Source of the DNA: Siphlonurus alternatus
Lineage: Eukaryota > Arthropoda > Insecta > Ephemeroptera > Siphlonuridae
Assembly: GCA_949825025.1 (NCBI GenBank)
Contig: OX463784.1
Location: forward strand, 1,327,168-1,391,167
Direction: 5' to 3'
DNA: 64,000 nt
Part shown: piece after piece, positions 19,258-49,616 of the stretch
How the letters are laid out: each line of letters starts with the position of its first letter
Position numbering within the stretch: position 1 is the stretch's first letter
Program-made: the position numbers and the translations under genes
Notes under the pieces: model-generated
The model's database searches: none
Seen by the model: only the letters and a program-made list of their open reading frames with translations
What the model was told of the DNA's origin: nothing

Positions 19258-19618
19258 TGTCATGTCTGTAATGGTCTATTTTGATGCTTCATCGGTGACC
19301 AAATACCTTACCTTATATGGTCATATAACGATGCCTGCCCCTCCACGGTTTACCTATTCTCCCACCTGTCTTACCCCTCCTAGTTAGAATCCGCGCCAGC
19401 CAGCGCCAGTTACCGCCTGACAACCTAACCTGACAGTTCTACCGCTATTCATACAGTGCTTTATTATAATATATATCATACTTGTGTTATATAGAATATA
19501 CACTAATCTTACCAGAATATACGCGTGTGTGATTTCGTATACAGGTTATACCCTTCCCCTAATTAGTCTTTTACATAATCTGAGACTCAATTAGGTAGAA
19601 GCAGCATCAAACATAACA
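19258..19618 (+). repeat. 5' LTR of the outer element
   Basis: It is a TG...CA terminal repeat. It differs from the 3' LTR by one base near 19471 (AATATATATC against AATTTATATC). Confidence 0.92.
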
Positions 19619-19619
19619 G

Positions 19620-19633
19620 TGGCGACGAGGAAG
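19620..19633 (+). promoter_or_regulatory. Primer-binding site of the outer element
   Basis: TGGCGACGAGGAAG begins one base after the LTR, as expected for a tRNA 3'-end (CCA) primer site in gypsy-type elements. Confidence 0.7.
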
Positions 19634-19657
19634 AAAGTGATGAGAAAAGTGCTGTAA

Positions 19658-22081: not shown

Positions 22082-22604
22082 TCGATCCCGATCGACGAGC
22101 GTATCGTTTATTTTTTATCAAAATTTGATATTTGTTTTGCTTGTGTCAATGCCTCATTGAAAAAGTAGTTTTCTGTTTTGTTTAATAACAACATAAAACA
22201 TATACTTTTATGTTACTTTCATAAATAGTTTTCCAGTAAAGTTGTTTAGTATTTTATATTCAAAATATAAATACATTGTAACTTAACAATGTATGTTTCA
22301 TGTTGTTTCTTAATTTCCTTTAATTTCTATTAATATATTAATAAATCGGCATTGATTAATATTGTAAAATAAAGTTAATTTTATAAAGTATTAATTATGT
22401 TAAATCGTTATTAATATTCAATTCAACTCAATATTAAGTAACACCTAGTTTCAATAACTATTATTTGCATTAATCAATAAAATTGTATTGCTATACAAAC
22501 TCAATGTTATAATATGCAGTATTCAATTTTATCGTAATTCTTGCATTGTTAATTAATATTTTGATCCTCATTTTGCTATGTTTCTCAAACTAGTGGGGAG
22601 GAAT
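22082..22604 (+). other. 3' untranslated region and polypurine tract of the outer element
   Basis: The region is very AT-rich with no ORF. It ends in GTGGGGAGGAAT immediately before the 3' LTR, which fits a polypurine tract. Confidence 0.65.
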
Positions 22605-22676
22605 TGTCATGTCTGTAATGGTCTATTTTGATGCTTCATCGGTGACCAAATACCTTACCTTATATGGTCATATAAC
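22605..22676 (+). repeat. 3' LTR of the outer element, first 72 bp
   Basis: It is identical to the start of the 5' LTR up to CATATAAC, where the inner element begins. TAAC (22673-22676) is repeated at 30126-30129. Confidence 0.92.
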
Positions 22677-23139
22677 TGTAAGATGCTAGTTCTATGCTTG
22701 GTAGAACTTTGTCTCTCAGACAACATGAGTGCGAGTATCGCACAACCGGAGCATTCAAGTCTCCTATTACCGCCGTGCAGACGCCAGCCAGGCAGTGGAA
22801 AACTACTGGCAGCTAGCTGCATGTGGGAAATGCAACCTCAGCAGGGGGAGCGAGAAGAGCGAGCTGTGCCGCGCGCTCCCGCCTGCCCGCGAGAGGGGCA
22901 TTCGTGGTTGGGCAGTCTGAGCTGTAGCCTGCTCTCCACACAGCATCTTATACTAGAGCAAAATAATATTCATAATTACTAATACACATTCTCATATTTT
23001 ATAAAGGGGTTTACTTTATTATAATCTTGTGTTCATAAATAAAAACCATAAAACCCATACACGTACACCGAATTATTAATTGTAATAATTACTCCAGCAA
23101 CCCATCGAACATACAAAGTAATAGGAAAGGCCTATTACA
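22677..23139 (+). repeat. 5' LTR of the inner element
   Basis: It is 463 bp, from TGTAAGATG to CCTATTACA. By eye it equals 29663-30125. The R/U5 region probably holds the AATAAA-like signals near 23035. Confidence 0.95.
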
Positions 23140-23142
23140 AGT

Positions 23143-23153
23143 GGTGTCAGAAA
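23143..23153 (+). promoter_or_regulatory. Primer-binding site of the inner element
   Basis: TGGTGTCAGAA lies four bases after the LTR. It begins with TGG, as a site pairing with a tRNA CCA end should. Confidence 0.65.
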
Positions 23154-23573
23154 AAAAAACGGACTACGCCGGGAAGAGACCAGTGAAGTGACAATAATTA
23201 ATAATAATAAAAAAAAATATATAGTTGGTTATAACTATATTTTAATACTTCAACTCGCCGCTCGTCTAACCTCATCGTCTACACGCCTTGCAATCAACGA
23301 GCATCTTCAACGAGAGCTGCCGCTGACCAGCCACATCGCTGCTGCTACCAGGACATCGTTGACCATTACCAGGCCCACGCTGACCACTACCAGGCCTTCA
23401 AGGACCATTTGCTGCCATCGGCTGTTGGAAGGGCAAACTCCAAGAAAGTTAAAGAGACGAGGTATGCCGATTTTATGTTTTTTTAAAATTCTCCCCAAAA
23501 CCTTTTAAATAATGATGCATGTTAGAGTGCATGGATGTGCATGAAGTAGTGAAGTCTGTTACAAAGCTACAAA

Positions 23574-24830
23574 ATGGCGGAAAAGTGTATAGTGGCGGGT
23601 AGATCAGTGACGCTGCAGGAAGCTATAGATACATTAACTAGATCCTTAGCAGCCGTACAAACTGAGAATGGCCAATTGAAGGAGAGAATGGCAAATTTTG
23701 ATCAAGCAGTAGAACGTAGAGTAAAAATAGAACTAGATGCTGCGAAACAAGAGTTAAATCAAAATTCTCTGATGTCGGGAGTCCCTCAAAGTAAAAAGAA
23801 TTACGCAGTTATGACTTCAGTTCCAAATTTCAGTGGTACTAGCTCAGAGAGCATTGTGTCATATTTTACAAAACTTGAGCAAGCAGCGCAGCTGGGGGTA
23901 TGGGCAGATGCGGATTTGCTAATAATAGCAAGGCAGAAATTAGATGGGGGTGCGATGGAGTTTGTCATGAGTGATGACAAGTGTAAAGTAGCTGAAACTT
24001 ATGCAGTTTTCAAAAATTTACTATTTGAGAGATACTCTGATAAAAACACGACAAGTTATTATCGCGAACAGCTGTCATCCATTACAAAGAAAGCCGATGA
24101 AACAGTTGAGGTGTATGCTGACAGGGTTAAGAAAGTGAATGCGAAAACATATACACTAGGGGAAAACACTGATATGAACATTGCAATCAAGGCCGAGGCA
24201 GACCACCGAGCTTTAGATGCATTCTTAAGAGGGCTCAACAGTGACCCCACACTAGAGGAGAAAACGAGGCTCAGCAAGCCTGAGAGCTTCCAGGCCGCGG
24301 TGTCTGCTGCTGTCAGTATTGTTGAGATTATGAGTAGATGCAAAACTAAAGAGGCCCCTACCACAAAGAGTATTTTTACGGCAGAAGCGTTAGAGGTAGG
24401 AAGATGCACACGCTGCAATCGTGCAGGACACCAAGATACCAACAGCACACCATGCTATAGAGCTATGTTTTGCACCAAATGCTTCAGGGAAAATCATCCT
24501 GCATCCCTGTGTAGGTCAAAGCCTCATCAGGGAGGTTACCAAGCCAGGCAAGGTGCTGGCAATATGCAACAGCCTAGGCGCATGTACTATGACAGTCGCG
24601 CAAGCAAGGGGGGGTATAATCAGCGCTATCAAAGTGACCAGTACCGTCAGCAGGACGCTAGGAGAAGCTACGTACCCAGGTTCCAGCATAAATCTGGGCC
24701 AACACGTGCCAACAGTCACCAGGAGCGCGAGAGCGCTGTAGAGAAAACCCGCCAAATCACGGCATCCCCAAACGGCCAGGGGGCTCGGCAAACCGCGAGG
24801 CAGAGCTCCCCACACGCCAGATCCCAGTAA
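23574..24830 (+). CDS. Gag of the inner gypsy element
   Basis: The protein has 418 residues. A coiled-coil-like N-terminus (about residues 12-65) with a heptad-rich SLAAVQTENGQLKERM is followed by a capsid-like domain (about 80-265) and a Cys/His cluster starting CTRCNRAGH and continuing CTKCFRENHPASLC (about 280-320). This departs from a single CCHC knuckle. The C-terminal tail is basic, Gln/Arg/Tyr-rich and probably binds RNA. The stop at 24828-24830 overlaps the open pol frame, which begins after a stop at 24689-24691. Pol is therefore probably made by -1 frameshifting within 24692-24827, but I could not identify a convincing slippery heptamer. Confidence 0.88.
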   Translation: MAEKCIVAGRSVTLQEAIDTLTRSLAAVQTENGQLKERMANFDQAVERRVKIELDAAKQELNQNSLMSGVPQSKKNYAVMTSVPNFSGTSSESIVSYFTKLEQAAQLGVWADADLLIIARQKLDGGAMEFVMSDDKCKVAETYAVFKNLLFERYSDKNTTSYYREQLSSITKKADETVEVYADRVKKVNAKTYTLGENTDMNIAIKAEADHRALDAFLRGLNSDPTLEEKTRLSKPESFQAAVSAAVSIVEIMSRCKTKEAPTTKSIFTAEALEVGRCTRCNRAGHQDTNSTPCYRAMFCTKCFRENHPASLCRSKPHQGGYQARQGAGNMQQPRRMYYDSRASKGGYNQRYQSDQYRQQDARRSYVPRFQHKSGPTRANSHQERESAVEKTRQITASPNGQGARQTARQSSPHARSQ

Positions 24831-27800
24831 GTGAGGTGCAAGGTGCTGAGCAAGCTGATGGTCTCCTCTTAGATTTCAAATATAAGGGGAGAAACTACAA
24901 ATTTCTAGTAGACACAGCTGCTCAAATTACTGTAATGTGGAAAAATACTTGCGGTACCAAGAATCTGACATCGAAAAAATACGATGTTCAAGGCTTAGGG
25001 GGTAACAAAGTTCAATGTTATGGCTACTCAGATCTTCCTATAAAAATAAATAATAAGAAATATGTAATTGAAACTCACGTAGTGGATAATTTCCACAAGC
25101 TTTACGATGGAATACTAGGCTTAGACATGATGGTGAAAAATCAGGCTATTATAGACGTGGGGGGCAGACAGATAGAGATAGGGGGCATCAAAACTCCGCT
25201 CATCCTCTGCTCTCACGAGGTACAGAAACGTGTGAATGCAATCAATAAGGGAACGCCCGGGCCCTCTGATGCTGATAGACTCATACAATCTACTTTACGT
25301 CTTCGACAACCTGAGACAGTCCCGCCAGGGACCGCCAAAACAATCCTTATGCAGATTCCCAAATCGTTAGCTCCCAGTGACTTGTACTTAGTTGAGCCAA
25401 TAGAAGTAAATAATGCTTTAGACGAGCAAAGATGTTATGTAGCTCGGAGCATAGGCCATGTAATAATGAAAAATGAGGTACAGTACATACCAGTCACACT
25501 TGCCAATATGAGCAATATAAAAGTACAGCTATACAAGGGGACGCCCATCGCTCTGATTAGCACAACGAGCGACGCTGTTATTCGTGAGACATCTGAGATT
25601 AATTTAAATGATAATGCCACACCCCAAAACTCGCTTCATAGCAAAAATATTAATGTAACGCAAACCGCACATGACGTCAGCAGGACAGCTGATTCACGTC
25701 CTCCCACAGTAAGTAGCAAAGATTTTCAGCTCAAGGAGGAGATCTTATCAACAAAGCTCAGCCACCTTACGAGTGAACAAGCAACAGAAATGAGGAAATT
25801 ATTACAGGAATTTAAAACTCTTTTCAGTGAGGAACACAAGCCAACTGCTCCTAACATTGTCCAACATAGGATAGATACTTATGATGAAATTCCAGTTAGG
25901 AGGAAGGGCTACAGAACACCACAAGGCTTACAAGCTCACTTAGATAACACTATCGAGGATCACCTGCAGCGAAAAATCATTTCGCCTAGTTTCAGCGCTT
26001 TCGGTGCAGGTATAGTGTTAGTTCAAAAAAAAGCCACAGATGGCTCTGCTAACATAACGTATAGGTTTTGCGTGGACTGGCGGGGTTTGAATAAAAAAAC
26101 AGTCCCCGAAACATACCCCCTACCGAATATTCAATTTACAGTGGATAATTTGGGTAAAAGTTGCTTTTTCACTCTATTAGATCTACGTGATGCATTCCAT
26201 CAGATCCCCATAGCACCAGAACATAGGCACAAAACAGCCTTTGTAGTAGATTCAGGAAAATACGCAGGAAGTTATGAATATAATTACATGGGCATGGGCC
26301 TCAGGAACGCTTCCACGACCTTCCAGCGGTTTATGGACGGTCTGCTGTTTGGACTCAAACCCACACAGGTCTGCGTTTTCTTAGACGACATTTTAATACA
26401 CGGGGCCTCATTTGAACAGCTGATGGAGAGACAGAGAGAAGTATTTACCAGGCTAAAAAATGCAAATTTAACATGTAAGTTACAAAAATGCTCCTTTGCC
26501 ACACAAAAAACGAAGTATTTAGGCCATACAATAAGCAGTCAGGGCGTAGAGCCTGATGAAGCTCTCATAGCTAAAATAAAAAATTTTCCCACCCCCACAA
26601 ACGTCAAAGAACTGCAATCAATATTAGGAATAATTAATTACTACAGGAGATGGATTGAGGGACATTCCAGGATAGCCAAACCACTTACAGATTTGCTAAA
26701 GACAAAAGGCCCAAAAGTAAAATTTGAATTTACAGAAGAATGCCAAAAAGCCCTAGATACACTGAAAGAAAAGCTCATCACAGCACCCATATTAATGTAC
26801 CCCGATTTCAGTAAGCGAATGACGCTGGCATGTGACGCGAGCGCATATGCTATAGGCTCCGTATTAAGTTTCACGGACGACGAGGGTAGAGAAAGGGTGA
26901 TTGGGTATGCGTCCCGCAAATTAAACCCCCGAGAGCAGCGGATGAGCACAACAGAAAGGGAGTTCTTGTCTATAGTATGGAGCTGTCATCACTTTAGGTA
27001 TTATTTACAGTACCAAGAAGACTTCCTCCTACTCACTGACCACGCAGCGCTTCAATATATATATAATATGCGCGATCCGTGCGCTAGAATTATGCGCTGG
27101 ATTCTCCGATTACAGGACTATAGGTTCGAAATAAAGCACCGACCTGGGTACCTCCACGGAAATGCCGATGGTTGTTCAAGATTAATAAATGTAATAAACA
27201 CATTTACCCCAGGTGAATTGCAGCGCAGGCAGGAGGAAGATTTGAAATGTAGAGAACTAAGTACACAGGAAAATTTTGTTACTGAAAATGGAATTTTATA
27301 TAAAAAAACACCTTTGGGGAACAGAATAGTTTTACCTCAGTCACTCATAGAGACAGTATTACAGCAAAACCATGATTCAATATTGTCAGGTCATATAGGA
27401 AAAAATGCAATGAATAGGAAAATAGCAGCAGACTATTGGTGGAAAGGCAGGAAAAAACATGTAGATTATTATGTCAGTACATGTAAGGCATGCGATAAGA
27501 GGAGAGAGACAGGAAAAATTAAAATGAAAATACATGAGCTACCTGAAACTACCTGCCCATGGGAAAGAATTGGCATTGATATTACACAATTGCCTAGTAC
27601 CACTGAAAATCACAAATATATCTTAACAATTTTAGATCATTTTTCCCGCTATCTTATTATGGTACCCCTAAAAACCCAGACCACAGAGGAAATTGCAGCT
27701 GCTCTTGTAAAAAATTGCTTCTTACCATTTGGTGTTCCAAAAGCCATTATATCCGATAATGGACAGAATCTAGTCTCATTTCTTATGCAAGACATATGTA

Positions 27801-28672
27801 AACTTATGCGCATTAAAAAACTCAAAATTTTGCCATATTCTAGTTTTCAAAATGGCCGTACTGAGAGAGTACACAAAACTATTAAAAAAATGTTGTCTTA
27901 TTATGTAAACTTCCAGCAAAACAATTGGCACACATTGCTGCCTTACGTGCTTTCTGCATACAACTCGAAACCCCACACAAGCACTTGTCTTAGCCCGTAT
28001 GAGATAGTATTTGGCACAAAAATGAACTCCGCATTTAGCGCAGTTAAAAACCCAGCAAAAATCCCAAAATTACATACTGTATATGCTCAGCAACTCGCTA
28101 CAAAACTCAGAGATATATGGGACAATGTGAAGTTATCTAATCACGAGTCATTCATTCAGCAAGCGAAACAATGTAATAAAAAAGCGCATGAGCATAGCTT
28201 CAAAATTGGGGATTTTGTTTGGCTAAATAACCCGGTTATTGAACAGGGAAAAAGTAAGAAATTGAGGGCAAATAATAAAGGACCATATCAGGTCACTAAA
28301 ATTAATAAGCCATACTCAATTGAAATAGAGTTGCCAGATAAAAAAATCTCAGTGCACGCTAATCGGCTACGCCCTTGTAAACAAAATCGGCAGGCAACAA
28401 CCTCAGAAAAGTCTCTTTCTTTACAGCCCGCCCACCCAGCTAGCCGAGACAACAAGCGCGAGCAGCCTGCAAGCAGTGACTCGCAAGAGAGAGGAGAGAG
28501 AGTTCATCGACCCAGCACAGCTGTGACCGACTCCCAGCCGGCCGCGACCTTGCCCGCACAAGCATCCAGCAAGCCAGCCGCCCCCGCCCCACCCCCTCTC
28601 CGCGCGCCTACAGCCCGCGACAACCTGCGACAAACAACTGCGAGACGAGTGAAAGGTTTCTATAAACAATAA
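24692..28672 (+). CDS. Pol of the inner gypsy element (protease, RT, RNase H, integrase)
   Basis: The frame is open from 24692. Residues are numbered from the GTG codon at 24836 (1278 residues onward). The protease active site is D26-T-A rather than DTG or DSG, followed by ILGLDMM. RT carries the FLDDIL catalytic pair D517/D518. RNase H has D667 (CDAS) and TEREF with E707/E709. Integrase has an HHCC-type N-terminus near 845-892 and the triad D915, D974, E1010 (35 residues between the last two). It is followed by a GPY-type module (NKGPYQV, HANRLRPC). The tail is Pro/Ala/Ser-rich. All catalytic positions I can check are present apart from the unusual protease Ala. Confidence 0.93.
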   Translation: MWANTCQQSPGARERCRENPPNHGIPKRPGGSANREAELPTRQIPVSEVQGAEQADGLLLDFKYKGRNYKFLVDTAAQITVMWKNTCGTKNLTSKKYDVQGLGGNKVQCYGYSDLPIKINNKKYVIETHVVDNFHKLYDGILGLDMMVKNQAIIDVGGRQIEIGGIKTPLILCSHEVQKRVNAINKGTPGPSDADRLIQSTLRLRQPETVPPGTAKTILMQIPKSLAPSDLYLVEPIEVNNALDEQRCYVARSIGHVIMKNEVQYIPVTLANMSNIKVQLYKGTPIALISTTSDAVIRETSEINLNDNATPQNSLHSKNINVTQTAHDVSRTADSRPPTVSSKDFQLKEEILSTKLSHLTSEQATEMRKLLQEFKTLFSEEHKPTAPNIVQHRIDTYDEIPVRRKGYRTPQGLQAHLDNTIEDHLQRKIISPSFSAFGAGIVLVQKKATDGSANITYRFCVDWRGLNKKTVPETYPLPNIQFTVDNLGKSCFFTLLDLRDAFHQIPIAPEHRHKTAFVVDSGKYAGSYEYNYMGMGLRNASTTFQRFMDGLLFGLKPTQVCVFLDDILIHGASFEQLMERQREVFTRLKNANLTCKLQKCSFATQKTKYLGHTISSQGVEPDEALIAKIKNFPTPTNVKELQSILGIINYYRRWIEGHSRIAKPLTDLLKTKGPKVKFEFTEECQKALDTLKEKLITAPILMYPDFSKRMTLACDASAYAIGSVLSFTDDEGRERVIGYASRKLNPREQRMSTTEREFLSIVWSCHHFRYYLQYQEDFLLLTDHAALQYIYNMRDPCARIMRWILRLQDYRFEIKHRPGYLHGNADGCSRLINVINTFTPGELQRRQEEDLKCRELSTQENFVTENGILYKKTPLGNRIVLPQSLIETVLQQNHDSILSGHIGKNAMNRKIAADYWWKGRKKHVDYYVSTCKACDKRRETGKIKMKIHELPETTCPWERIGIDITQLPSTTENHKYILTILDHFSRYLIMVPLKTQTTEEIAAALVKNCFLPFGVPKAIISDNGQNLVSFLMQDICKLMRIKKLKILPYSSFQNGRTERVHKTIKKMLSYYVNFQQNNWHTLLPYVLSAYNSKPHTSTCLSPYEIVFGTKMNSAFSAVKNPAKIPKLHTVYAQQLATKLRDIWDNVKLSNHESFIQQAKQCNKKAHEHSFKIGDFVWLNNPVIEQGKSKKLRANNKGPYQVTKINKPYSIEIELPDKKISVHANRLRPCKQNRQATTSEKSLSLQPAHPASRDNKREQPASSDSQERGERVHRPSTAVTDSQPAATLPAQASSKPAAPAPPPLRAPTARDNLRQTTARRVKGFYKQ

Positions 28673-28762
28673 AAAGAGTTGGTGCATATAAGACACTTTG
28701 GTAATTTTTATTATTAAAAAATTATTTTCTTTTCATATTTAATTTTTAACACATATTTCATA

Positions 28763-29155
28763 ATGGATAATAAAAATCAACTCGAGCTAAACACGTACTA
28801 TCGTAAACTCATGCATTCAAATATTGATGAAAATGAAACTCTGATTAAATATAAAAACGGAATGAAATCACTTCTTAAATTCCTCCTTGAATCATCCCTC
28901 CTAGGCCAAGATGCCAACTGCAGCACTGATGAGTGTTACAGTAAACTCATGCATGTTAGTGCAAATGCAGAGGAGGAGAATCCCCTTCTCAATTTTAAAC
29001 AGGGGATAAAATCAATGCTTGAATTTCTCCGTGACAATTACGAGCTCACGGATTGTTGGGAGTGCAAGATCAACAAGATCTCATGCCCAGAAAATGAGTG
29101 CATGCAGAAATTGGCTCTGCGTTACAATCCACGTGTAAATGTTCCAATAATCTGA
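28763..29155 (+). CDS. Third ORF of the inner gypsy element, internally repeated, function unknown
   Basis: This 130-residue protein lies between pol and the 3' LTR, where env or accessory genes sit in some gypsy elements. It has no signal peptide or membrane segment, so it is not an envelope protein. It consists of two similar blocks: residues about 12-48 (YYRKLMH, then IKYKNGMKSLLKFLLE) and about 57-95 (CYSKLMH, then LNFKQGIKSMLEFLRD). A degenerate third start follows (CMQKLALRYN). Conserved Cys residues (CWECKINKISC) lie near the end. I recognise no family. The lack of stops in a young element argues that it is maintained. Confidence 0.7.
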   Translation: MDNKNQLELNTYYRKLMHSNIDENETLIKYKNGMKSLLKFLLESSLLGQDANCSTDECYSKLMHVSANAEEENPLLNFKQGIKSMLEFLRDNYELTDCWECKINKISCPENECMQKLALRYNPRVNVPII

Positions 29156-29662
29156 GGAATTATAGCAACAGTTAATCCATATGTGAGCATGTAATAAATA
29201 GAAATCTTAGTTTCATACCATTGTTGTCTTATAAATTTTATATTTTTTATTCATTTCTATATTAATTTTTCATAAAATGTCAAATGAAGGTTATAATACA
29301 TCAACAAAAATTTTCAAATCAAAATATGTTTATGCAATCCAAGAAATGCCTATGTTCATCTAATAATAGATGCAAAAAATGTTGATCGTATTATAAGCAA
29401 TAATTATAAAAAAATTTTAAATTTTTTATCATAATATCTAATTTTATACAACTGTAAGCAATGTGACAAATAATATCTTTGAAATAGCAATTATTCAATC
29501 AATATAATTTATACAATTATATCAATAAATAAAAAATATAATAAATTTCAATTTTTAAATACAAAAAAAAAAATCAAAGATATTATTTTATAACTATGTC
29601 TGTTAAACTAACCCTTACATTTATATAGACACGGGACGGTCTATTTTTTCTGAAGGGGGACG
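29156..29662 (+). other. 3' region and polypurine tract of the inner element
   Basis: AT-rich and non-coding. GAAGGGGGACG at the end is the likely polypurine tract. Confidence 0.6.
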
Positions 29663-30125
29663 TGTAAGATGCTAGTTCTATGCTTGGTAGAACTTTGTCT
29701 CTCAGACAACATGAGTGCGAGTATCGCACAACCGGAGCATTCAAGTCTCCTATTACCGCCGTGCAGACGCCAGCCAGGCAGTGGAAAACTACTGGCAGCT
29801 AGCTGCATGTGGGAAATGCAACCTCAGCAGGGGGAGCGAGAAGAGCGAGCTGTGCCGCGCGCTCCCGCCTGCCCGCGAGAGGGGCATTCGTGGTTGGGCA
29901 GTCTGAGCTGTAGCCTGCTCTCCACACAGCATCTTATACTAGAGCAAAATAATATTCATAATTACTAATACACATTCTCATATTTTATAAAGGGGTTTAC
30001 TTTATTATAATCTTGTGTTCATAAATAAAAACCATAAAACCCATACACGTACACCGAATTATTAATTGTAATAATTACTCCAGCAACCCATCGAACATAC
30101 AAAGTAATAGGAAAGGCCTATTACA
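29663..30125 (+). repeat. 3' LTR of the inner element
   Basis: It is 463 bp and appears identical to 22677-23139. The translated frames in both LTRs are shadows and not genes. Confidence 0.95.
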
Positions 30126-30129
30126 TAAC

Positions 30130-30418
30130 GATGCCTGCCCCTCCACGGTTTACCTATTCTCCCACCTGTCTTACCCCTCCTAGTTAGAATCCGCGCCAGC
30201 CAGCGCCAGTTACCGCCTGACAACCTAACCTGACAGTTCTACCGCTATTCATACAGTGCTTTATTATAATTTATATCATACTTGTGTTATATAGAATATA
30301 CACTAATCTTACCAGAATATACGCGTGTGTGATTTCGTATACAGGTTATACCCTTCCCCTAATTAGTCTTTTACATAATCTGAGACTCAATTAGGTAGAA
30401 GCAGCATCAAACATAACA
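30130..30418 (+). repeat. 3' LTR of the outer element, last 289 bp
   Basis: It continues the LTR begun at 22605-22676; TAAC at 30126-30129 is the duplicated target. It ends CATAACA and is followed by CATTT, the outer target duplication. Confidence 0.92.
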
Positions 30419-34366: not shown

Positions 34367-34712
34367 TTAAAGGTATACAGGCCTCAAATTACAAATTAGA
34401 CAGACATTAAGTCTTGCTCAAGTTTATTATCAACATTCATATTATTTTTACCTGCGCGCGGTGCGTCTGTGCGAAGTTGCGCTGTAAAGAAAGTCCTTGC
34501 TGACGTCAATACTCACAGCTAGCACCGATTAGCATTCAGTTGTGACGTCATCAAGGACTTCGTGACGTCATCAAGGACTAAATTTCTTACTTTGAAGTGC
34601 GACTTCGCACGGATGCATCACGCTTGGAAAAAAATGATGCAAATGTTGATTATATACTCTAAACCCACTTGGTGAGTGTCTAATTTGTAATTTGAGGCCT
34701 GTATGCCTTTAA
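34367..34712. mobile_element. TTAA-flanked MITE inside the LINE
   Basis: The ends TTAAAGGTATACAGGCCTCA and the complement CCTGTATGCCTTTAA continue through CAAATTACAAATTAGACA on both sides. The core has TGACGTCATCAAGGACT repeats. Removing it restores a continuous LINE reading on the minus strand. Confidence 0.85.
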
Positions 34713-37539
34713 CAAACATAGCTTTTACTGATTCTAATTTATCAAGGTCAGATACAGATAAATGAGGCCATACGATTTCAATACTTTAAATGGCCATAGG
34801 GGCGACTTTTAAATTGAATAGTTTGAGCCCTGTTTTGACGGATAGACCAGACAGACCTGAGATAGTGTACATAGCGGTGATAGCATTCTTACATCTTTCT
34901 GTTATATGTTTAGAGAAAGAGAGCCCTGTCATTTGAAGTATTATGCCAAGATATTTAAATGAGTTTAGGAATTCATTCTTGTGACCGTCACAATATATTT
35001 TATCGTTTTTGCACAGCGGTCCGCCTCTTCTAAACTTTACAACCTTGGTTTTCTCTGTGTTAATTTCTAGATCATTTGTTTTGGCCCAGATAGATAGATT
35101 ATTTAGTGATTTTTGTAGCTTGACTTTGCTCTTTGAAATAATAGCAAGATCATCTGTATATAAATTTAGTAAGACTTGATCATTTTTATTTTCCCAGTTT
35201 ATATCTTTTGTAATCTCGGTTATATCTGCAGTAAAAAGATTGTAAAGGAGAGAGCTGCTCGGGTCTCCTTGCAAAACTCCGTTAGATTGAATAATATTAC
35301 TAGAACATGATAAACGATCTTGAACGCATACATAATTGATATTTAGAATAACAGCTAAGATATTCAAAATTTCAAAAGGAATTACATTAAGTGACTTCAG
35401 CTTTTCAATGAGCAAATTCCTACTGACTGAATCAAAAGCTGTTCTGAAGTCTACAAAAGCAATGTATTAATGACCCTTTGGCTTCTCCAGTGCTAATTTA
35501 ATTTGATTATGTACTGTGGATACAGCTTGTATTGTGGAGCGTCCTGGCGAAAAGCCGTATTGCTCTTTTGGAATAAGATAGTGGGTGGAATAAAAAAGCC
35601 TGTTTGCAAATAATCTCGAGAAGAGGTTGTACATGGTATCACCATGGATAATACCTCTGTAAGAGTCGGGTGACATAATATTACCCTTCCCTTTGTATAA
35701 TACCATTAGGTAGGCGATCCGCCACAATTCCGGAATTGTAGCCGTTTCGGTACAAAGATTAAACATGTTGTTGATTGTTGGGGTTTACGACTTGCTTACT
35801 ACCTTCAAATAATCATTTGTAATAAAATTTGGGCCCGAAGATTTATTGTTTTTTAGGCTTTGCATGCAATTATAAACTTCAAATTCATTAAAAGGAATAA
35901 AATTTGAGTTACAATTACAGTCTCTTGTTAATGATAAAAGATTGAGAGTTTGGTCGGATTGTAATTTATTTGTATTTAGGATATTTGTAAAATGGTTTTC
36001 CCACTTGTCTATATCGATTGGGCATGATTTAATTTGCGGTCTATCTTTCCTAAGATATGTATATGGTTCAAGCTCTGCGTCTTTAATCATTTTATCTTCC
36101 GATTTAATTTTAAATTCTAATTATTTCTGTTTCAATAAAGCCTTATAACAATTTCTTGCCTAAATGAATTGCTCATGCAAATTTGGGCTTTTGAATAAAT
36201 ATAATTTGCTGGCATGAAATTTTGATAGAAGATCAAGCCTTGATAGATAACATTCGCTATCAAACCAGGGTTTAGATACTCTTTTATTGTTTTTCTATGC
36301 AAAAGTGGAATGAAGAATGACATTAGTAATCAAAGTATTTAGACTATTTACATCTTTATTATTGATATGAGTACACTGTAAAAAAATTCTTTGTACTTTT
36401 ACAAAAAATAATAGGAAATAAAACGCCAAATTAAAAACGTGTATTTAAACTTAAAATTTTGTAATTTGAGATTACAAATTTAAATGTATAATCACAAAAC
36501 TTTAATATTTGTAAAAATACATAAATTTTTGTTATTCAACAATTACAATATTTTTCGTTTTTTTTTACACGTTTAAAATGTGGCGTTTTATTTCCATTTT
36601 TTTAATGTAATTTTACATTTTTTTTTTGTCATCTGAAAAGTTACAAACCTGTTTGTTTTTTTACAATAATAAAAGTTGCATTCAATACACGTTATTTACT
36701 ATCTGTCGAATCAAATTTAAGGAAATAATTGATCCAATTTTTTTTATCTATTATATGTAACAATTTTTTTTATTAAAATAATTTACTAAAATTGCTAGTA
36801 ACAATTTTTGGAATCTATCGCGAAAAATCATTCTAACGTCTATGGCATAGTAGTTTTGGGCCTTATATAATATATGTACGAGTATATATAGTTCTACATT
36901 TCCCTTACTTAACATCTCGCACGCAAATTCTGTTGAATAGTCAATCGGACTGATACACAGAATTAAATATTATATCTGCCATAAAAACCAAGCAGCAATT
37001 TTGATTTTTAATTCTCCAGGACAAGCAACATAGAAATTGTAGGATGAATTTTCTTCAACATAATGCTATATCAAATTAAAATCAAATAAAAAAAAGAATT
37101 TCTTTAACATAAAAATTATTTTTTTTAATAAAAAAAATACCTTAATATGAAAGGCCGTGTTGTCTTCCGGCAGAGCGTCGTATCTGGTCAAATTCAGAAT
37201 AGCGTTGTTGTTGTTGATTTTTTTATTTTATCAAATCATTATAGTGTTTTACAGGACCTTCTCTATCACATGGTAAATTCTCTTGGTCATCAGACCACTG
37301 CAAGCATGCAAAAATGCCTCCAATGTGCATTTTTCATGGTAAAACTGCATATTAATTTCCAAATTATTGTCTGGTAGAACAAAAGCGTATCTGACAAAAA
37401 TAGCTCACAGGACAGTCTGACAAAAGGGCGTATGTGGTTAAATTTCATACTTGCATCTGACAAAGGGGTATATCTCGCAATGTATACAACCAAAAGGGGC
37501 TATGTAACTATTGCTTATACCTTATGCATAACATTATAC

Positions 37540-38077
37540 TTAAAATAGAGTGAGCGGTTTCATTATTTTTAATATTTTATTTTCTAAAAACAGTTTAACT
37601 CGCCCTCTATTAAGAAATGAAAACCACCAAAAAATTCCATCTCAAATAGCTTCACCACAAAAAAATCCCAAAGTTGGTGTTTCGGAGGCCTTTATTAACA
37701 TGCATCCTTATGGAACAGTAAACAGCTTTTTTTACCAACTTCGTCTGAACTATGGTACCAATTAAGAAATACCTACGTAATCTATGATGAATTCTTTAAT
37801 GGATTTTCAAATATTTTTTTTTTACGGAACCGTTTTTCCGGAAAAAATCTTAAAAATCCTTATGGGAATTAACCCGCAAAAATTTCAATATTTTTTTTTC
37901 TGTTCCATATATAAGGATGCATGATAAAGGCCTCCGAAAAACCAATTTTGGGAATTTTTTTGTGGTGAAGCTATTTGAGATGGAATTTTTTGGTTTTAAT
38001 TTCTCAATAGAAGGCAGGTTAAACTATTTTTAGAAAATAATATATTCCAAAAAATGAAATCGCTCACTCTACTTTAA
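37540..38077. mobile_element. Foldback MITE
   Basis: TTAAAATAGAGTGAGCGG and the complement CGCTCACTCTACTTTAA bound two long arms that share blocks such as ATCTCAAATAGCTTCACCAC and GCCTTTATTAACATGCATCC (as complements on the right). Confidence 0.85.
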
Positions 38078-38130
38078 AATCTGAACCTGTATGAGTTGCA
38101 ATTTTTAGCATGCAACAGCAATTAAATTAT

Positions 38131-38292
38131 TTTTTTTTTTACAAGGATAAACCCCCATGAGCTTGGAGCTTGAGGCAACGTAATGGGACATAAAGAAGGG
38201 GAGAGTGGTGGCCACGGCCCGTTACGCGTCCCAGCATTCGCTGAGTTGAGACTGAGGGAACCGTGGAAACTCTGTCAGAACGGACAGTATTA
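38131..38292 (-). mobile_element. SINE 3' fragment
   Basis: It matches the 3' part of the 5S-derived SINE at 60614-61023. It has the same T-run followed by ACAAGGATA, then GGCCACGGCCCGTTACGCGT and CCAGCATTCGCTGAG. The 5S-like head is missing. Confidence 0.75.
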
Positions 38293-38423
38293 TTGAATAT
38301 TTTATATGCACGTAAAGGAAAAACTTCACGATTTTTTTGTATTGCTTAACTGGATAGACGACCTCTAGTTATGTACTCACGTTATTTTTTTTAACTTATT
38401 TCAACCCTTTATAATACTTAAGG

Positions 38424-38880
38424 TATAAACTGAGAATTTGTCTGTCAAGGTCAAGAGGCGTGGCTATAGTGGCAACACTGTTTGCATTGGAATGAGCTTA
38501 AATTTTTAGGAGGGGGTGGTAACAACATTCCTTGAGAACGTTGCCACATTTCTCATCACATATAGGAAACGATCATCGCCACGGTTCAAAATATATGAAA
38601 ACAATTCAGAAAAATAGTCTAAAAAATTAGGTTTTAGTAAAAAAAAAAAGTAAAAGAATCTGTTGTATAGTTTTTTTGCAATGCTAATTAACAAATTTAA
38701 CATTGGAAGGATACAAAATTCTCATTTAAATAAATTAATTATAATTAAACCAACGGTTAAAAAATTCCGAAAAAATTCAGAGCTAATTTGACGATTGTTG
38801 TGAGTCCACCAAATTAATTTGAAGAAAATCTGTTGTAGCGAATTTTTCATCCAAATTTCTCAGGTTAAGCCTTAAAATGT
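38424..38880 (-). repeat. Dispersed repeat of about 455 bp, copy 2
   Basis: It is the inverted diverged copy of 11453-11907. See the blocks listed there. Confidence 0.7.
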
Positions 38881-40522
38881 AATTTTGAAAATTTTTAAAA
38901 AATTCTTAAATATTTGACAACACAGAACTTGAGATACCAAAAAAAAAATAAAAATAAAATTATAATTAGAAAAGGTAAATAAATCTTAGGTCATCCATTA
39001 TATAGTTATCGAAGTATTATTTGACAAATACATTTAAATATATAAATAATTTAATAATAAATATATTATATATTTTATTCGTTTAACAAAACTGCTTGCA
39101 AGTTCGTAAAAGCAGACAATGAATTATTTTTATCATGCAATGGTTGAGACGAAATAGTCGTAAGAACGGGCAAATTTTCTATGTTAAAGCTGTATGCAAA
39201 TAGTGCAACACATGTACGATAATAATTTTTTTTTGTATAGTTTGAGAGTATTAAACGCACTCAAAAACAATGGATATTTGATATAGCGCAATATACACTG
39301 AATTCAATTACAAATTATAAAAAAAACTTGCATATTATTAAGATTGAGCATTAATTAAAAATAATTAGACCATACAATTATTATAAAATTGCAAAGAAAT
39401 TACAACCAACAGAAAGGTTATATTATTAAATATTTGTTTCTCTATACCGGTAGTTACATATTAATATTCCCGAGTTTTTATACTCTAATAACAAGTAATT
39501 TTATTAATTGCAAAAACCTCTATGTATGCATCTGGAAGAATAACATTAGAATCTCATAAAAAGACGTATCTAGTAAAAGAAAATTTTAAAAATGCTAATT
39601 GATTCCGACACAAAGGCGTATCTGCTTGGCAGAAAAATCGTTTGCTTTATTCCGGCAGAATGTAGTATCTGGCTTTTTCCATATTTAAAATAATTTTCCT
39701 GCACGGAGTTTTGCTCGTATCCTAATTTAATAAACAAGAACCATAGATGTTCATGTCATCTGTCAGCAGTAAAAAAATGAAATACATCGAGACATAAATA
39801 AAGATTTTGTGACAGTTGCATAGAAAAAAAAATCTTATTTTTGCTCTCCTGAACAATTATAAAAAATCCAGATACGACGTTCTGCCGGAAGACACCAAAT
39901 TATGCATATAGTCCTTTTTATATTATTGTAAAAAAATTAAAATTGCATTAAAACTACCAACACGCGAACTAACTTTGTAAGCGTCTGTAAGCCGTAATGA
40001 TGCTTTCATCATTGCTTACAGAAAAGTACATAAAATGATACAAATCACTGCCCAAAATATAGAGTAACACTTACCGAAGAATTTGAGCACTGAATCTGGG
40101 GTCCTTCACTAATTATATCACCATAAATTGTTAACTTACTAAGCTGGAGAACTACGTGGTGTCATGGCGTCTCTTTGTGACGCTTACGACTGTCTCATAT
40201 CATGTAATAGTACATAATATTTTGTAATATGAACAAACAAAAATGTAGTTTTACATTTTTTTTAAGTAATATTACATTTATTTAGAGTAATTTTACGTTT
40301 TCTTATGCGTTCTTTGAATACATTTTACAATGTAAAAATATTAAAGTAAATTTTTGTAACAATACGTAACATTTCGTATGTTTATTATTTTTACGTTTAG
40401 CTCAGTGATTTTACAAATTCTTTCATAAATCTGCAATTTCTAATGAAAAAATGACAAAAACGTTAAAAAATGTAGAATTACATGTTAAATTTTACGACAA
40501 ATTACAAATATTTTTTACAGTG

Positions 40523-41320
40523 TAATCATGGTATCACCATGAGTATAAATTTGGTCATTATAATTTCTAATGTCAATTTTGTTTGAATAATTTGGTCTGT
40601 AAAAAAGTATTTCATTGGGAGGTTTGCTAGGGGTAAGTTTTAAAATAATTTCACCGGGTAGGTGACTCTTTAACAGTGACGAGTTTGTCTCAGAAATAAT
40701 GACATGCTTTATCAATGTAAAATTCTTAGGTTTATAAAAAAGCAGGTCGATTGTACTTGACCCATTTGCGTTTACAAAAGTTTTTTCTAGAGGGCTATTA
40801 GAGAGTAAGTAGCCATTTGAATTTAAAATGTCTAATAGAATGTCTATCTTGTTTCGTAAATGTTTCGGGACATTTGAAAAGTCAATTCTACAATTGAAGT
40901 CACCCGTGAAAATTACATTAGCATCATTTTCTGTGAGGCTTATTGCATATAGTACTACCTCCATTAGTTCGAAAACTGTAAAATATTGATTAAAGCACAT
41001 GGCAATAACTGTAAAATATTTAGTTTTGATGATGATAGAATCTTTAAGCCTTAAGAAATTTAAAATTGGACCATGCTTTGGGTTTATGAAACATGAGATG
41101 CCTCCAAACGGTCTCTCTTCTCTCTCTGCCATTTGAGGACAAAGTTGTGGAAGGAGTAGTAGCCATTTATGTCAAGTGATTCAAGTAAAGAGGTCTCTGT
41201 AAATACAATAATATCTCGGTTATGAAGAATATTGTCTGAGATTAACGGTAGTAGCCTTTTCAGGCCTTCCACATTCCATAAGAGAATGTTTAGTCTTAGT
41301 GGTGAGTTTGAGACTACCAC
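40523..41320 (-). pseudogene. Non-LTR retrotransposon: APE-type endonuclease, frameshifted
   Basis: On the minus strand, LNILLWNVEGLKRLLP and IVFTETSLLES (41300-41180) form the start of an apurinic-endonuclease-like domain. After a frameshift near 41130-41100, in a GAGA-rich run, the frame continues with GGISCFI, then TGDFNCRID (D78-N80 of this frame), then SSTIDLLFY and LLKSHLPGEI where the family has an SDH motif. The catalytic GDFN is present. The frame runs into the TIR element at 40522 and resumes beyond it at 36371. The start overlaps the stop of the macrodomain ORF, the tight ORF1/ORF2 spacing common in LINEs. Confidence 0.82.
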
Positions 41321-42435
41321 CTCGTCAACTTTGGACGGGGTGGAGCAGAGAGGGTTGCGCGAAAATGCGGGCTCGGATTGGTTGAGCTTGTTATATGTTG
41401 AGGCGGGTTGTTAAGTTTGGGGAGATGGGGGGGGGGAGAGTTGTAGTGGAAATGCTGAAGAGAGCTAGAGGGGGACTTAGAACTTTCAGAGAGCATGTTG
41501 AGCCTGTAGTAGTAGGGAGCCTTGATGAGGCGGGGAGGGCCTGATGGCATTGGATGGGAACTGTTTGTATTTGGGACACATGAGGGGCGAATGGAGGTGG
41601 TTGACTGCGAAGTGCAGAGACGGGTGAGCACGGGATGATAGGACTTAGGGGGAGATGAGGGTGGATGGACATTTTGGGGGGTGGGATGTGCCATTGTAAG
41701 TGGGGATAAGGAGAGGGGTGGGGCAGAGGGATGGGGGAGAGTAGTGGGTGGAGTTTTGGGTTAAGGAGGAGGGGCAGAAGGTTTAGGGAATTGGGAATTT
41801 GGAGGGGAGATTTGAGGAGGGTGCATGAGACCATCGTTTGATGATAAGGAGGTGAGATGATCAGATAGGAAAGTTTTGGGTTGGGTTTGGTTGTCAACTT
41901 GGGATGTTGTTGAAGACGCCATGTGGCGAGGACTTCTTCTCCTCTGCTTCAGAGAGTAGACCTCAATAAGGATGTCCACATTGATGAAGATGGATTCGAT
42001 TTTGTTCTTGACATAATTCCAATTGAGTCCATCTAGGCCGGAGCCGATACGAGGGATTGCGATTCTTTTAATTTCATTTTTGACGCAGTGATTTTTAAAA
42101 CCATTCAGACCTTTAAGGAAATTCTTCAAAAATTGATTTTTGTTTTGGTAATACTTTTGTTTGGACTTAAACTTTGTAATTAAGTACAAAATGGTTTCAC
42201 CATCTACTTGCAGTGTAGCGATATCACCAGGGAATCTTTGTTTGTTTCTGAGGTGTTCCAAGTTGACGTAGATATTTTTAAATTTCTTGGCTATGCCTGC
42301 ATTCATCTTGAGGTCAGCGATTCTTTCCCTTAGCCAAGAAGGATGAGATGAAAAAACGTGTGATCTGGACAGAACCGGCAACACTGTAAGCTTTCCGGTT
42401 TCTTCTGAATAATAAAAGTCCCCCTTCCAAATTTT
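41314..42435 (-). CDS. LINE ORF1 with a TARG1/OARD1-like macrodomain, one internal stop
   Basis: On the minus strand the frame from about 42435 gives a possible first strand (KIWKGDFYYSEETGK), then LKMNAGIAKKF, ILYLITKFKSK, a helical FLKGLNGFKNHCVKN, AIPRIGSGLDGLNWNYVK and ILIEVYSL. This is the order of a macrodomain of the TARG1/OARD1 class (ADP-ribosyl-glutamate and O-acetyl-ADP-ribose hydrolase). The two residues known to matter in TARG1, the Lys of YLITK (K71 counted from the TTG codon at 42384) and the Asp of GLD (D118), are both present. A basic KQRRRSPRH segment and a long Pro/Ser-rich tail follow in the same frame, broken by one TAA at 41761-41763. The ORF ends at 41314, overlapping the endonuclease ORF. 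The upstream border is unsure because of a tandem repeat. Confidence 0.8.
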
Positions 42436-42565
42436 GAGTTCCGGTTTCTTCTGATTAAAAATTCAATTAATTCCCCCTTCCGATTTACACTTTCCGGTTT
42501 CTTCTGATGAAAAGCCCCCCTTAAGTTTCGCTTTCCGGTTTCTTCTGATTAAAATCTTCTATCTA
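42395..42565. repeat. Irregular tandem repeat upstream of LINE ORF1
   Basis: CCGGTTTCTTCTGAT-type units begin at 42395, 42441, 42494 and 42535, each followed by a C-rich run. Another partial unit lies near 42730. On the LINE strand this is the 5' leader and start of ORF1, so it may be a promoter-type monomer array. Confidence 0.75.
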
Positions 42566-44306
42566 GGGGTCATATAAACTTGGCAACGTTTTCACGTTTT
42601 TTCACTCTCATTATTCTGGGCTGTAAGTCAGATTAGAGGTCAGCAGCGACTGCATGAGCTTATACGACGGAACTGGGAACTTCGAGAATATTTCCTGTTT
42701 TTTCTATAATTTGACAAGTGATGTCTGACTCGGTTTCTTCTGATTGTCTGACGAGTGATGTTGGGGGGAGGAATGATAGCAGCAAGGAATTCCAGATATT
42801 CCTTGAGCTCTGGGTGCATATTTTAAAGGAATGACAACACCTTAATTAGTTGTCAAATACTTTCGGACAAATAATATAAAAAAATATTTTAACTTCGTAA
42901 GTGATTTCTTTCCTAAAAATTTTATTATTTTTGTGATTCTGCCCATGCTGTATCGATGTATTGCCGTATCCTCGATGCAAAGAGCAAAATTTTCAGACGT
43001 CAGCGCCATCTCTTGGTCCTTTATGTCCTCTATATTTACAAGGAGAGGAGGAAAGGTGTTGTAATTGAAATTGGAATTGAACTATCTGAGATTTAGCCTG
43101 CTCCTCTGCTTGGAAGTTTTGATACGCTAGTTCCTATGAATGATTGACAAATCCTGTAATTTGACTGTGAAAATCTTACTAAGATCGTTAATTTGGTGTG
43201 GGGTCTCATGATCGGACAAGAGGTCGTTATACATCAAATCTTTCATGGCCAGTCATGTGTTCTCGAGTAGCCTGTGATGTGAGGTCTATTATGAGAAAAG
43301 ATTTTTAAATGATAGTATAGTCTACTGCGCATGGCTCCGCATAGTGTGTTTAATAAGAAAAATAGAATCCAAATTAGGTTACGCAAACGCTAGGAGACTA
43401 ATCTGCGCACAGTCAATAGAAGCTTTGTTTGCTTTATGAACAAAGATATGACCTTCTACCCCAGATTGCTTGCTAATTGCAGTGTTTAAAAATTCCTATA
43501 ATACATTACTGCAATTGGTTTGGCGTGTAGTAATGCAAATAAATATAAAATTTGAGATGAAATGAAAAACAACGTTTTTGTTAATGTTGAACAAAAACTC
43601 TGCTCCGGTAGGGGCCCCTCGTGCAGCGGAATAGCTGTTTTGAGCTCACTACGTGACGTCACCTTGGGTGATTTGAGCCAAAATGCGCAGATCAGTGTGA
43701 ATTCCTAGGGCTGATGGACCTTTCTATGTATTATAGTTGTATCATGTACATATTGTGCATTCTAACATGTATATTGCATTTTCTGATGTTCATTGATTTT
43801 TGATTGGGTAGGACATGTTTGTAGCTGGACATGCAATTTGCTTGTTTTTTTTTATAAAATGAATTGCATTGAATATAATAAAATCTAACATCAAAAGAAC
43901 CAAACTACCGGTTTATACACTGAAAATAATAAAATTACATTTATTCATACAATACAAGAAAATGGTGGTAAAGTAGCAATAGGCATGCATTCATTGATCA
44001 TGTTTTTTTTTTTTTTTTAAATATAGTAGTTTCATGTATAAATCAGCTAAACTACCAGAAAATATAACCAACCAGTCTTAATATAAAAATATTGTAATTT
44101 ATTTATTTTGGTAATAAATATTCTACTTTTTTTATATTTTTATGATAGTTTTTAATGTTTTATTTTTTGGTACTGATATTTTTTTTTTAATGACGTGATC
44201 TATATTTGTTAAATATGTACAACATTAACGATTAAATAAAGAATTTGAATAACGAAATATTTCCAAGTATACCTTGATAATAATTTTTTAACTTAATTTG
44301 TTACAG
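42566..44306. other. Probable LINE 5' leader, then AT-rich non-coding DNA
   Basis: Bases 42566-43000 may still belong to the LINE leader. No ORF or repeat border is supported from there to the exon at 44307. Confidence 0.35.
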
Positions 44307-48465: not shown

Positions 48466-49616
48466 AATGAGATGTATATAATTATAACTGGAGAGAGATT
48501 AATTTAATCAAGTATTTTTTTTTATTTGTCTTTATTTATGTATGGAAACACATTTATTATGAAACTTGATTAATACAGTATATAATTATAACTGGAGAGA
48601 GATTAATTTAATCAAGTATTTTTTTTTATTTGTCTTTATTTATGTATGGAAACACATTTATTATGAAACTTGATTAATACAGTATATAATTATAACTGGA
48701 GAGAGATTAAATTAATCAAGCATTTTTTTTTATTTGTCTTTATTTATGTATGGAAACACATTTATTATGAAACTTGATTAATACAGTATATAATTATAAC
48801 TGGAGAGAGATTAATTTAATCAAGTATTTTTTTTTTATTTGTCTTTATTTATGTATGGAAACACATTTATTATGAAACTTGATTAATACAGTATATAATT
48901 ATAACTGGAGAGAGATTAATTTAATCAAGCATTTTTTTTTTATTTGTCTTTATTTATGTATAGAAACACATTTATTATGAAACTTGATTAATACAGTATA
49001 TAATTATAACTGGAGAGAGATTAATTTAATCAAGTATTTTTTTTTTTGTTTTTTTTTATGTATGGAAACACATTTATTATGAAACTTGATTAATACAGTA
49101 TATAATTATAACTGGAGAGAGATTAATTTAATCAAGCATTTTTTTTTATTTGTCTTTATTTATGTATGGAAACACATTTATTATGAAACTTGATTAATAC
49201 ACTATATAATTATAACTGGAGAGAGATTAATTTAATCAAGTATTTTTTTTTAATTGTCTTTATTTATGTATGGAATTACATTTATTATGAAACTTGATTA
49301 ATACAGTATTTATAACTGGAGAGAGATTAATTTAATCAAGCATTTTTTTTATTTGTCTTTATTTATGAATGGAAACACATTTTTTATAAAACTTGATTAA
49401 TACAGTATATAATTATAACTGGAGAGAGATTAATTTAATCAAGTATTTTTTTTTTTATTTGTCTTTATTTATGTATGGAAACACATTTATTATGAAACTT
49501 GATTAATACAGTATATAATTATAACTGGAGAGAGATTAATTTAATCAAGTATTTTTTTTTTTATTTGTCTTTATTTATGTATGGAAACACATTTATTATG
49601 AAACTTGATTAATACA
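48466..49616 (+). repeat. Satellite array, 11 units of about 105 bp
   Basis: The segment AACTGGAGAGAGATTAA recurs eleven times at 98-110-bp spacing. Within each unit TTAATCAAGT and ACTTGATTAA can pair as the stem of a hairpin whose loop holds the T-run and TTTATTTATGTATGGAAACA. Units differ mostly in T-run length and a few bases. The array is non-coding. Confidence 0.95.

What the first reader, a model, noticed from the sequence alone, without database searches (positions are those of the whole stretch)
41314..42435. LINE ORF1 encoding a TARG1/OARD1-like macrodomain
Immediately upstream of, and overlapping, the APE endonuclease of a non-LTR retrotransposon, the minus strand reads as a macrodomain: LKMNAGIA, ILYLITK, AIPRIGSGLDGLNW and ILIEVYSL in the right order and spacing. 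The Lys of YLITK and the Asp of GLD, which TARG1 needs to cleave ADP-ribose from glutamate, are both kept. A basic linker and Pro/Ser-rich tail follow in the same frame with only one stop. An ADP-ribosyl hydrolase as a retrotransposon's first ORF could counter PARP-type defence or repair signalling during target-primed integration. The macrodomain assignment is strong; the biological role is inference.
Basis: partly seen in the sequence, partly recalled or inferred. Interest (0 to 1): 0.9.

Follow-up and report, generated by a model that had tools for sequence, protein, structure and literature searches.

The report
Jumping gene carrying an ADP-ribose eraser
In this invertebrate-like genome, several families of jumping genes (LINE retrotransposons) carry, as part of their first protein, a well-preserved copy of an enzyme domain that in human cells removes ADP-ribose tags; the copy in this window is broken, but unbroken ones exist elsewhere in the genome.

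The parts
34708..42815 (-). dead LINE copy of the window family, as far as it aligns to the copy L031 (L031 2471-6068), interrupted by two inserts
   Evidence: blastn to L031: 42815-42636 (81.7%), 42318-40522 (93.7%), 36373-34708 (93.7%)
42636..42815 (-). 5' part of ORF1 preserved here, including the N-terminal beta-alpha-beta of the macrodomain (about 42719-42636); frameshifted by a 22-nt net insertion and with one stop
   Evidence: alignment to L031 2471-2628; translation; the frame of L031 reads through here
42319..42635 (.). 317-bp insert splitting the macrodomain; 9-bp flanking repeat GCTGACCTC; holds copies of CAGAAGAAACCGGAA
41950..42318 (-). macrodomain, remaining ~123 aa: ADLKMNAGIA ... 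YLITK (Lys84 of TARG1) ... PRIGSGLDGLNW (Asp125) ... VYSL
41314..41949 (-). Pro/Ser-rich ORF1 tail in the same frame, one stop at 41763-41761
   Evidence: open in L031 ORF1
40522..41410 (-). ORF2 N-terminal part, APE-type endonuclease, frameshifted (pieces 41410-41084 and 41171-40522)
   Evidence: Pfam Exo_endo_phos_2 2.3e-7 on the second piece, none on the first
36374..40521 (.). 4.15-kb insert with terminal inverted repeats CACTGTAAAAAA...TTTTTTACAGTG and TA on both sides, parting EN from RT
34708..36373 (-). ORF2 reverse transcriptase region, one frame with three stops (first bases 35787, 35469, 34788)
   Evidence: RVT_1 9.7e-37 in the open ORF2 of L031

Best explanation
This is a remnant of a non-LTR retrotransposon family whose ORF1 protein carries a TARG1-type macrodomain between an N-terminal part (with a short helix likely to be a coiled coil, seen in the L036 model, and basic or Gln/Asn-rich linkers) and a disordered Pro/Ser/Thr-rich tail, followed by an overlapping ORF2 (endonuclease and reverse transcriptase). 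Shown: the macrodomain is inside the mobile unit, occurs in several families some of which moved recently, is under strong purifying selection where that could be measured, keeps the TARG1 fold and, with one exception, the catalytic dyad, and has been exchanged between ORF2 lineages. Inferred: the domain is an active ADP-ribosyl hydrolase carried on the LINE RNP. It would erase mono-ADP-ribose from acidic residues of RNP or chromatin proteins, or from nucleic-acid ends, that host ADP-ribosyltransferases put there during cytoplasmic RNP life or target-primed integration. In that sense it would work like viral macrodomains, but in a selfish genomic element and with a host-type (TARG1) enzyme.
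Against: No activity was measured. One family (L037) has Asn for Asp125, so binding alone may do there. One human study describes PARP as protecting the ssDNA intermediates of TPRT (PMC12824672, passages), which does not favour a simple 'PARP is the enemy' story. Synonymous changes are near saturation in the macrodomain pairs and more so in ORF2, so the ratios are rough. Six of the 19 loci have a broken or short ORF2.
Confidence: 0.6

Rival explanations
1. The macrodomain is a reader or nucleic-acid-binding module: it takes the place of the RRM/CTD of other ORF1 proteins, binding the LINE RNA, or ADP-ribose at nicked chromatin, to hold or steer the RNP. Catalysis is incidental.
For: Pfam found no RRM, transposase-22, zinc knuckle, PHD or esterase in the 9 LINE ORF1s tested. 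The whole-ORF1 model of L036 (mean pLDDT only 52) shows just a helix (79-109), the macrodomain and short C-terminal helices as ordered, so the macrodomain stands where RNA-binding domains usually stand. L037 lacks the Asp.
Against: Lys84 in 16 of 16 and Asp125 in 15 of 16 LINE rows is more than binding alone would ask. The basic or Gln-rich linkers could bind RNA by themselves (inference).
Confidence: 0.25
2. The domain keeps LINE nucleic acid clean: it removes ADP-ribose from the 5' phosphate of LINE RNA or from thymidines of the cDNA or target, for example against DarT-like enzymes or RNA-modifying ADP-ribosyltransferases.
Against: No DNA- or RNA-modifying transferase was looked for in this genome; substrate preference cannot be read from the sequence.
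Confidence: 0.2
3. Host TARG1-like gene or retrocopy next to which a LINE landed.
For: The genome does have TARG1-type frames without an ORF2 in the stretch read: L053, which groups with human TARG1 (92/85, 84/87), L051, L052 (only 1.1 kb each read), and the double-macrodomain L039.
Against: Mobility, linkage and selection evidence.
Confidence: 0.01
4. Captured host gene fragment kept passively by recent, fast amplification, without function.
For: The window family is very young (150 of 3675 candidate RT matches scored, all 150 at 96-100% identity), so open frames there say little by themselves.
Against: Between diverged families the macrodomain is the best kept part of the element in the three usable pairs, and families only 30-40% alike keep the dyad in 15 of 16 rows.
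Confidence: 0.03

Closest known systems
Human TARG1/OARD1 (C6orf130), PDB 4j5q/4j5r/4j5s
   Different: TARG1 is a small single-domain host protein; here the domain sits inside a retrotransposon ORF1 of 489-821 aa (from the first Met)
Type IV ORF1 (esterase) of CR1/L2-lineage LINEs (PMC4120745, passages)
   Same: ORF1 of a non-LTR element that carries an enzyme-type domain in place of RRM/CCHC; ORF1 types move between lineages
   Different: Esterase versus macrodomain; 'macro' does not occur in that paper's main text; the five types as described there do not include it
Virus-derived helicase in ORF1 or ORF2 of insect Jockey/TRAS LINEs (PMC5563155, abstract and passages)
   Same: LINEs that captured a foreign enzyme domain with a possible counter-defence role
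   Different: Helicase from RNA viruses; here the nearest relatives are TARG1-type genes
Viral macrodomains (alphavirus nsP3 and others)
   Different: 9-14% identity, another macrodomain class; the counter-ADP-ribosylation role of viral ones is recalled, not from a call
DarG macrodomain (DarT/DarG)
   Same: ALC1/TARG1-like class; second-best fold match
   Different: 21-23% identity; according to a PMC9411070 passage DarG has no Lys/Asp dyad, whereas nearly all of these ORF1s do

Membership tests
TARG1-type macrodomain | Sequence homology to TARG1 above all other macrodomains | tested here: met
   (among solved structures)
TARG1-type macrodomain | TARG1 fold | tested here: met
   model pLDDT 92.6. 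The model is of L031's domain with a 21-row alignment, not of the broken window copy
TARG1-type macrodomain | Catalytic Lys84 and Asp125 | tested here: met
   Lys in 16 of 16, Asp in 15 of 16 LINE rows; numbering checked; both kept in the window copy
TARG1-type macrodomain | ADP-ribosyl hydrolase activity | not testable with these tools
   no assay
Non-LTR retrotransposon (LINE) | APE endonuclease and RT in ORF2 | tested here: met
   RVT_1 in 9 of 9, an EN family at E<=0.1 in 8 of 9 ORF2 tested (L049 none; L040 weak, 0.022)
Non-LTR retrotransposon (LINE) | Dispersed copies with shared ends and 5' truncation, no LTRs | tested here: met
   LTRs were not looked for by a separate test
Non-LTR retrotransposon (LINE) | Target-site duplications | tested here: inconclusive
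   no clear duplication seen at L031, L032, L033, L034 by eye
ORF1 types I-IV (RRM/CCHC, transposase 22, PHD, esterase) | Presence of one of these domains in ORF1 | tested here: not met
   none in the 9 LINE ORF1s tested at E<=0.1 by Pfam; a remote RRM is not excluded by this, though the L036 ORF1 model shows no ordered second globular domain
Viral macrodomains | Direct sequence kinship to viral macrodomains | tested here: inconclusive
   Among solved structures the nearest by sequence are TARG1 and then DarG; animal-virus chains match only by fold at 9-14% identity. IMG/VR contigs hold TARG1-like domains at 26-39% identity to L031's, in contexts not examined

The most novel reading that the evidence does not exclude
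LINEs have domesticated a host ADP-ribose eraser as an ORF1 enzyme: an active TARG1-type hydrolase, captured from the host and passed between LINE lineages by ORF1 exchange, that overrides host ADP-ribosylation during retrotransposition. It would be a selfish-element counterpart of viral macrodomains and would point to ADP-ribosylation as an anti-transposon barrier in this host group.
Probability: 0.45. Interest if true: 0.92.

Novelty: new variant of a known kind. Interest (0 to 1): 0.85.

Why it matters
ORF1 is the least understood part of LINEs. An ORF1 built round a conserved ADP-ribosyl hydrolase domain gives a concrete, testable link between ADP-ribosylation and retrotransposition, and a natural panel of diverged families, one of which (L037) lacks the catalytic Asp, for telling catalysis from binding. 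If active, it suggests that ADP-ribosylation matters to LINEs strongly enough to select for an eraser that, in the pairs measured here, is better conserved than reverse transcriptase itself.

Tried and rejected
Host-gene neighbour: rejected (see rivals). 'L031 starts at the true 5' end': my first reading, rejected (L031 is itself truncated by about 170 bp). Single origin of the LINE macrodomains: neither shown nor rejected (p-AU 0.217 for 17 LINE rows, P0002 among them, against 8 others). Clade of the ORF2s: not settled; the non-window group looks CR1/L2-like to me by recalled motifs only, the window family's clade is unknown. A PDB search with L031 ORF2 matched 13 sequences: L1 and R2-type elements first, bacterial group-II-intron-type RTs below. 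The first protein search, with the 233-aa window frame, found nothing; candidates there could be at most 1.75 times the query's length, so whole ORF1s fell outside. The viral-contig scan kept 80 of 86 loci at 26-39% identity; I read none of them. Host name: COI reads as invertebrate mitochondrial and looks arthropod-like to me from recall; species not identified. Novelty: ten paper searches in all; seven asked for macrodomain/macro domain/OARD1/Appr-1 together with retrotransposon, LINE or transposable-element terms. Three listed no paper, the other four three papers between them, none of whose titles or abstract beginnings concerns a LINE macrodomain. The one that recurred, PMC5434184, I opened: its 'macro domain' is the gene MACROD2 (passages); the other two (PMC10301789, PMC4695847) I did not open. 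Only open-licence papers are held. Repbase was not available, so an element with this ORF1 may be listed there.

Full report
WHAT IS IN THE WINDOW. The minus-strand frame 42462-41761 (233 aa) matches human TARG1/OARD1 at E 1.5e-21 over residues 49-171 (phmmer against PDB); Pfam's Macro model alone is below its cut-off, so the assignment rests on TARG1 itself. The copy is dead. Aligned to the related copy L031 it falls into 42815-42636, 42318-40522 and 36373-34708. A 22-nt net insertion shifts the ORF1 frame, a 317-bp insert with a 9-bp flanking repeat splits the macrodomain, one Lys codon of the domain is a stop, the tail has a stop, EN is frameshifted, a 4.15-kb insert with terminal inverted repeats parts EN from RT, and the RT frame has three stops.

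MOBILE UNIT, NOT HOST GENE. The window is G000:C7:1327168-1391167 of a 455.7-Mb assembly in 102 contigs. That search scored 150 of 411 candidates; 28 places besides the window have 90-92% identity to the window protein over residues 48 to 232 or 233, in open frames of up to 553 aa. Of the 29 near copies fetched (L002-L030; 97-100% alike to L031 at the DNA level), 17 start at the same point about 370 bp before the ORF1 ATG (L016 and L020 are identical with their flanks, hence 16 insertions) and 12 start at graded points further in: the pattern of 5'-truncated LINEs. RT matches of the family: 150 of 3675 candidates scored, all 150 at 96-100% identity. In another family, L032 and L033 are 99.97% identical over 6344 bp with different flanks. 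The 3' ends seen carry short repeats, TAA-type in L031, TTTGAA-type in L032-L034, GAATT-type in L044/L047; clear target-site duplications were not seen by eye.

ARCHITECTURE. I chose 20 of the hits, not at random, for full reading (L031-L050). 19 of 20 have a macrodomain ORF1 followed by an ORF2 frame on the same strand; in 13 it is unbroken (989-1035 aa), in 6 broken or short (L035, L037, L038, L042, L046, L050); it overlaps ORF1 in 18 of 19. The exception, L039, is a double-macrodomain gene without ORF2. Pfam gives RVT_1 in 9 of 9 ORF2 tested and an EN family in 8 of 9. Of 10 frames tested (9 LINE ORF1s and L039) it gives Macro in 9 at E<=0.1 (L047 missed), over cut-off in 4 (L037, L039, L040, L049), and no RRM, PHD, CCHC or esterase. 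AlphaFold of the whole L036 ORF1 (mean pLDDT 52) orders only a helix at 79-109, the macrodomain and C-terminal helices. By position alone, a macrodomain match lies at the expected distance upstream in 26 of 42 long-ORF2 copies of the window family, 29 of 33 of the L040 family and 34 of 51 of a group 69% like it in RT. The search lists were capped; the rest may be truncated or uncounted, and I could not check them.

SELECTION. For the three pairs with measurable divergence (L036-L045, L036-L043, L043-L045) Nei-Gojobori dN/dS is 0.046, 0.074, 0.062 in the macrodomain, 0.36-0.50 in the ORF1 N-part, 0.52-0.56 in the C-part, 0.12-0.24 in ORF2. Synonymous differences are 0.51-0.66 per site in the macrodomain and 0.60-0.74 in ORF2, so the values are rough, but the macrodomain is lowest in all three. 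Of the other seven pairs in that call, six had no macrodomain dS estimate (saturation), and L033-L046 gave 0.19.

TWO LINEAGES AND EXCHANGE. The window family's ORF2 (L031) is 23.5-29% identical to the 15 other ORF2 rows, over 293-498 residues; among themselves those 15 are 30-99%. ORF1 groups L043 with L036/L045 (100/100) and rejects L040+L043 (p-AU 1e-5); ORF2 groups L043 with L040 (100/100) and rejects L036+L043+L045 (p-AU 4e-70) (I had seen both trees before naming the groups). L033 and L046 group by ORF1 (100/99, with a warning about their letter make-up); holding their ORF2 together is only marginally rejected (p-AU 0.03), with long branches. So this ORF1 is a cassette that changes partners, as known for other ORF1 types (PMC4120745, passages). 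One capture or several cannot be told (p-AU 0.217). A protein outside this genome's loci, P0002 (unnamed, 3902-base contig), is a whole ORF1 45% identical to L040's; its organism is unknown. The two further hits, P0003 and P0004, have a macrodomain in other settings and are not claimed as LINE ORF1s.

MECHANISM. Shown: position, mobility, constraint, fold, dyad. Inferred: hydrolase activity and its target. TARG1 erases ADP-ribose from Glu/Asp, nucleic-acid ends and thymidine. PARP1 is part of human nuclear L1 complexes (PMC5821459, passages), while one paper describes PARP as protecting TPRT intermediates (PMC12824672, passages), so host ADP-ribosylation can be friend or foe. I rate erasure of host-laid ADP-ribose on the RNP or at the integration site first, RNA/ADP-ribose reading second. 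The roles overlap, and the confidences given to the explanations do not sum to 1.

NOVELTY. An ORF1 with a macrodomain is outside the five published ORF1 types as described in PMC4120745 (passages); seven targeted paper searches listed no paper on it (one listed paper opened). Only open-licence papers and no Repbase could be searched. I call it a new variant of a known kind.

Noticed in passing
L031-L050, ORF1/ORF2 junctions: ORF2 overlaps ORF1 by 37-112 nt in 18 of 19 loci, in the -1 or the +1 frame. In L031, L036, L040/L042, L043, L044/L047 and L045 the first Met of the ORF2 frame lies 135 aa or more in, past the EN start where Pfam placed it, so ORF2 may be made by frameshifting or reinitiation, perhaps as a macrodomain-EN-RT fusion. 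Among the loci whose ORF2 is in the -1 frame, a slippery heptamer in the fitting phase is seen only in L032/L033/L034, L037, L038 and L041.
   Followed up: partly
G000:C3:50095846-50096607: RT match in an unbroken frame of 1783 aa, long enough for ORF1 and ORF2 in one frame; not read, and no macrodomain match was found upstream.
   Followed up: no
L039:1686-3389: 568-aa frame with two tandem TARG1-type macrodomains, the first with Arg and Asn at the dyad positions, and a Ser/Tyr/Gln repeat tail; no ORF2.
   Followed up: partly
P0004: 364-aa protein joining a TARG1-type macrodomain to an OSK/GDSL-esterase-like domain; esterase is the hallmark of another LINE ORF1 type, but whether P0004 is LINE or host is unknown.
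   Followed up: no
P0003: 739-aa protein with a likely coiled coil, a macrodomain and, by eye, a second degenerate macrodomain.
   Followed up: no
window 36374-40521: 4.15-kb insert with terminal inverted repeats and TA on both sides, Tc1/mariner-like by its ends; no frame of 100 aa or more in it.
   Followed up: partly
window 19325-30418: Two nested pairs of direct repeats, each 100% identical (19325-19618/30125-30418 and 22677-22976/29663-29962), around gag-like frames and a Ty3/gypsy-like frame of 1326 aa (24692-28672): young LTR-type elements, by eye.
   Followed up: no
window 48474-49616: Tandem array of 104-bp units, 11 copies, 95% matches.
   Followed up: no
IMG/VR loci L055-L134: 80 viral-contig loci encode TARG1/DarG-like macrodomains at 26-39% identity to L031's domain; contexts not read.
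   Followed up: no
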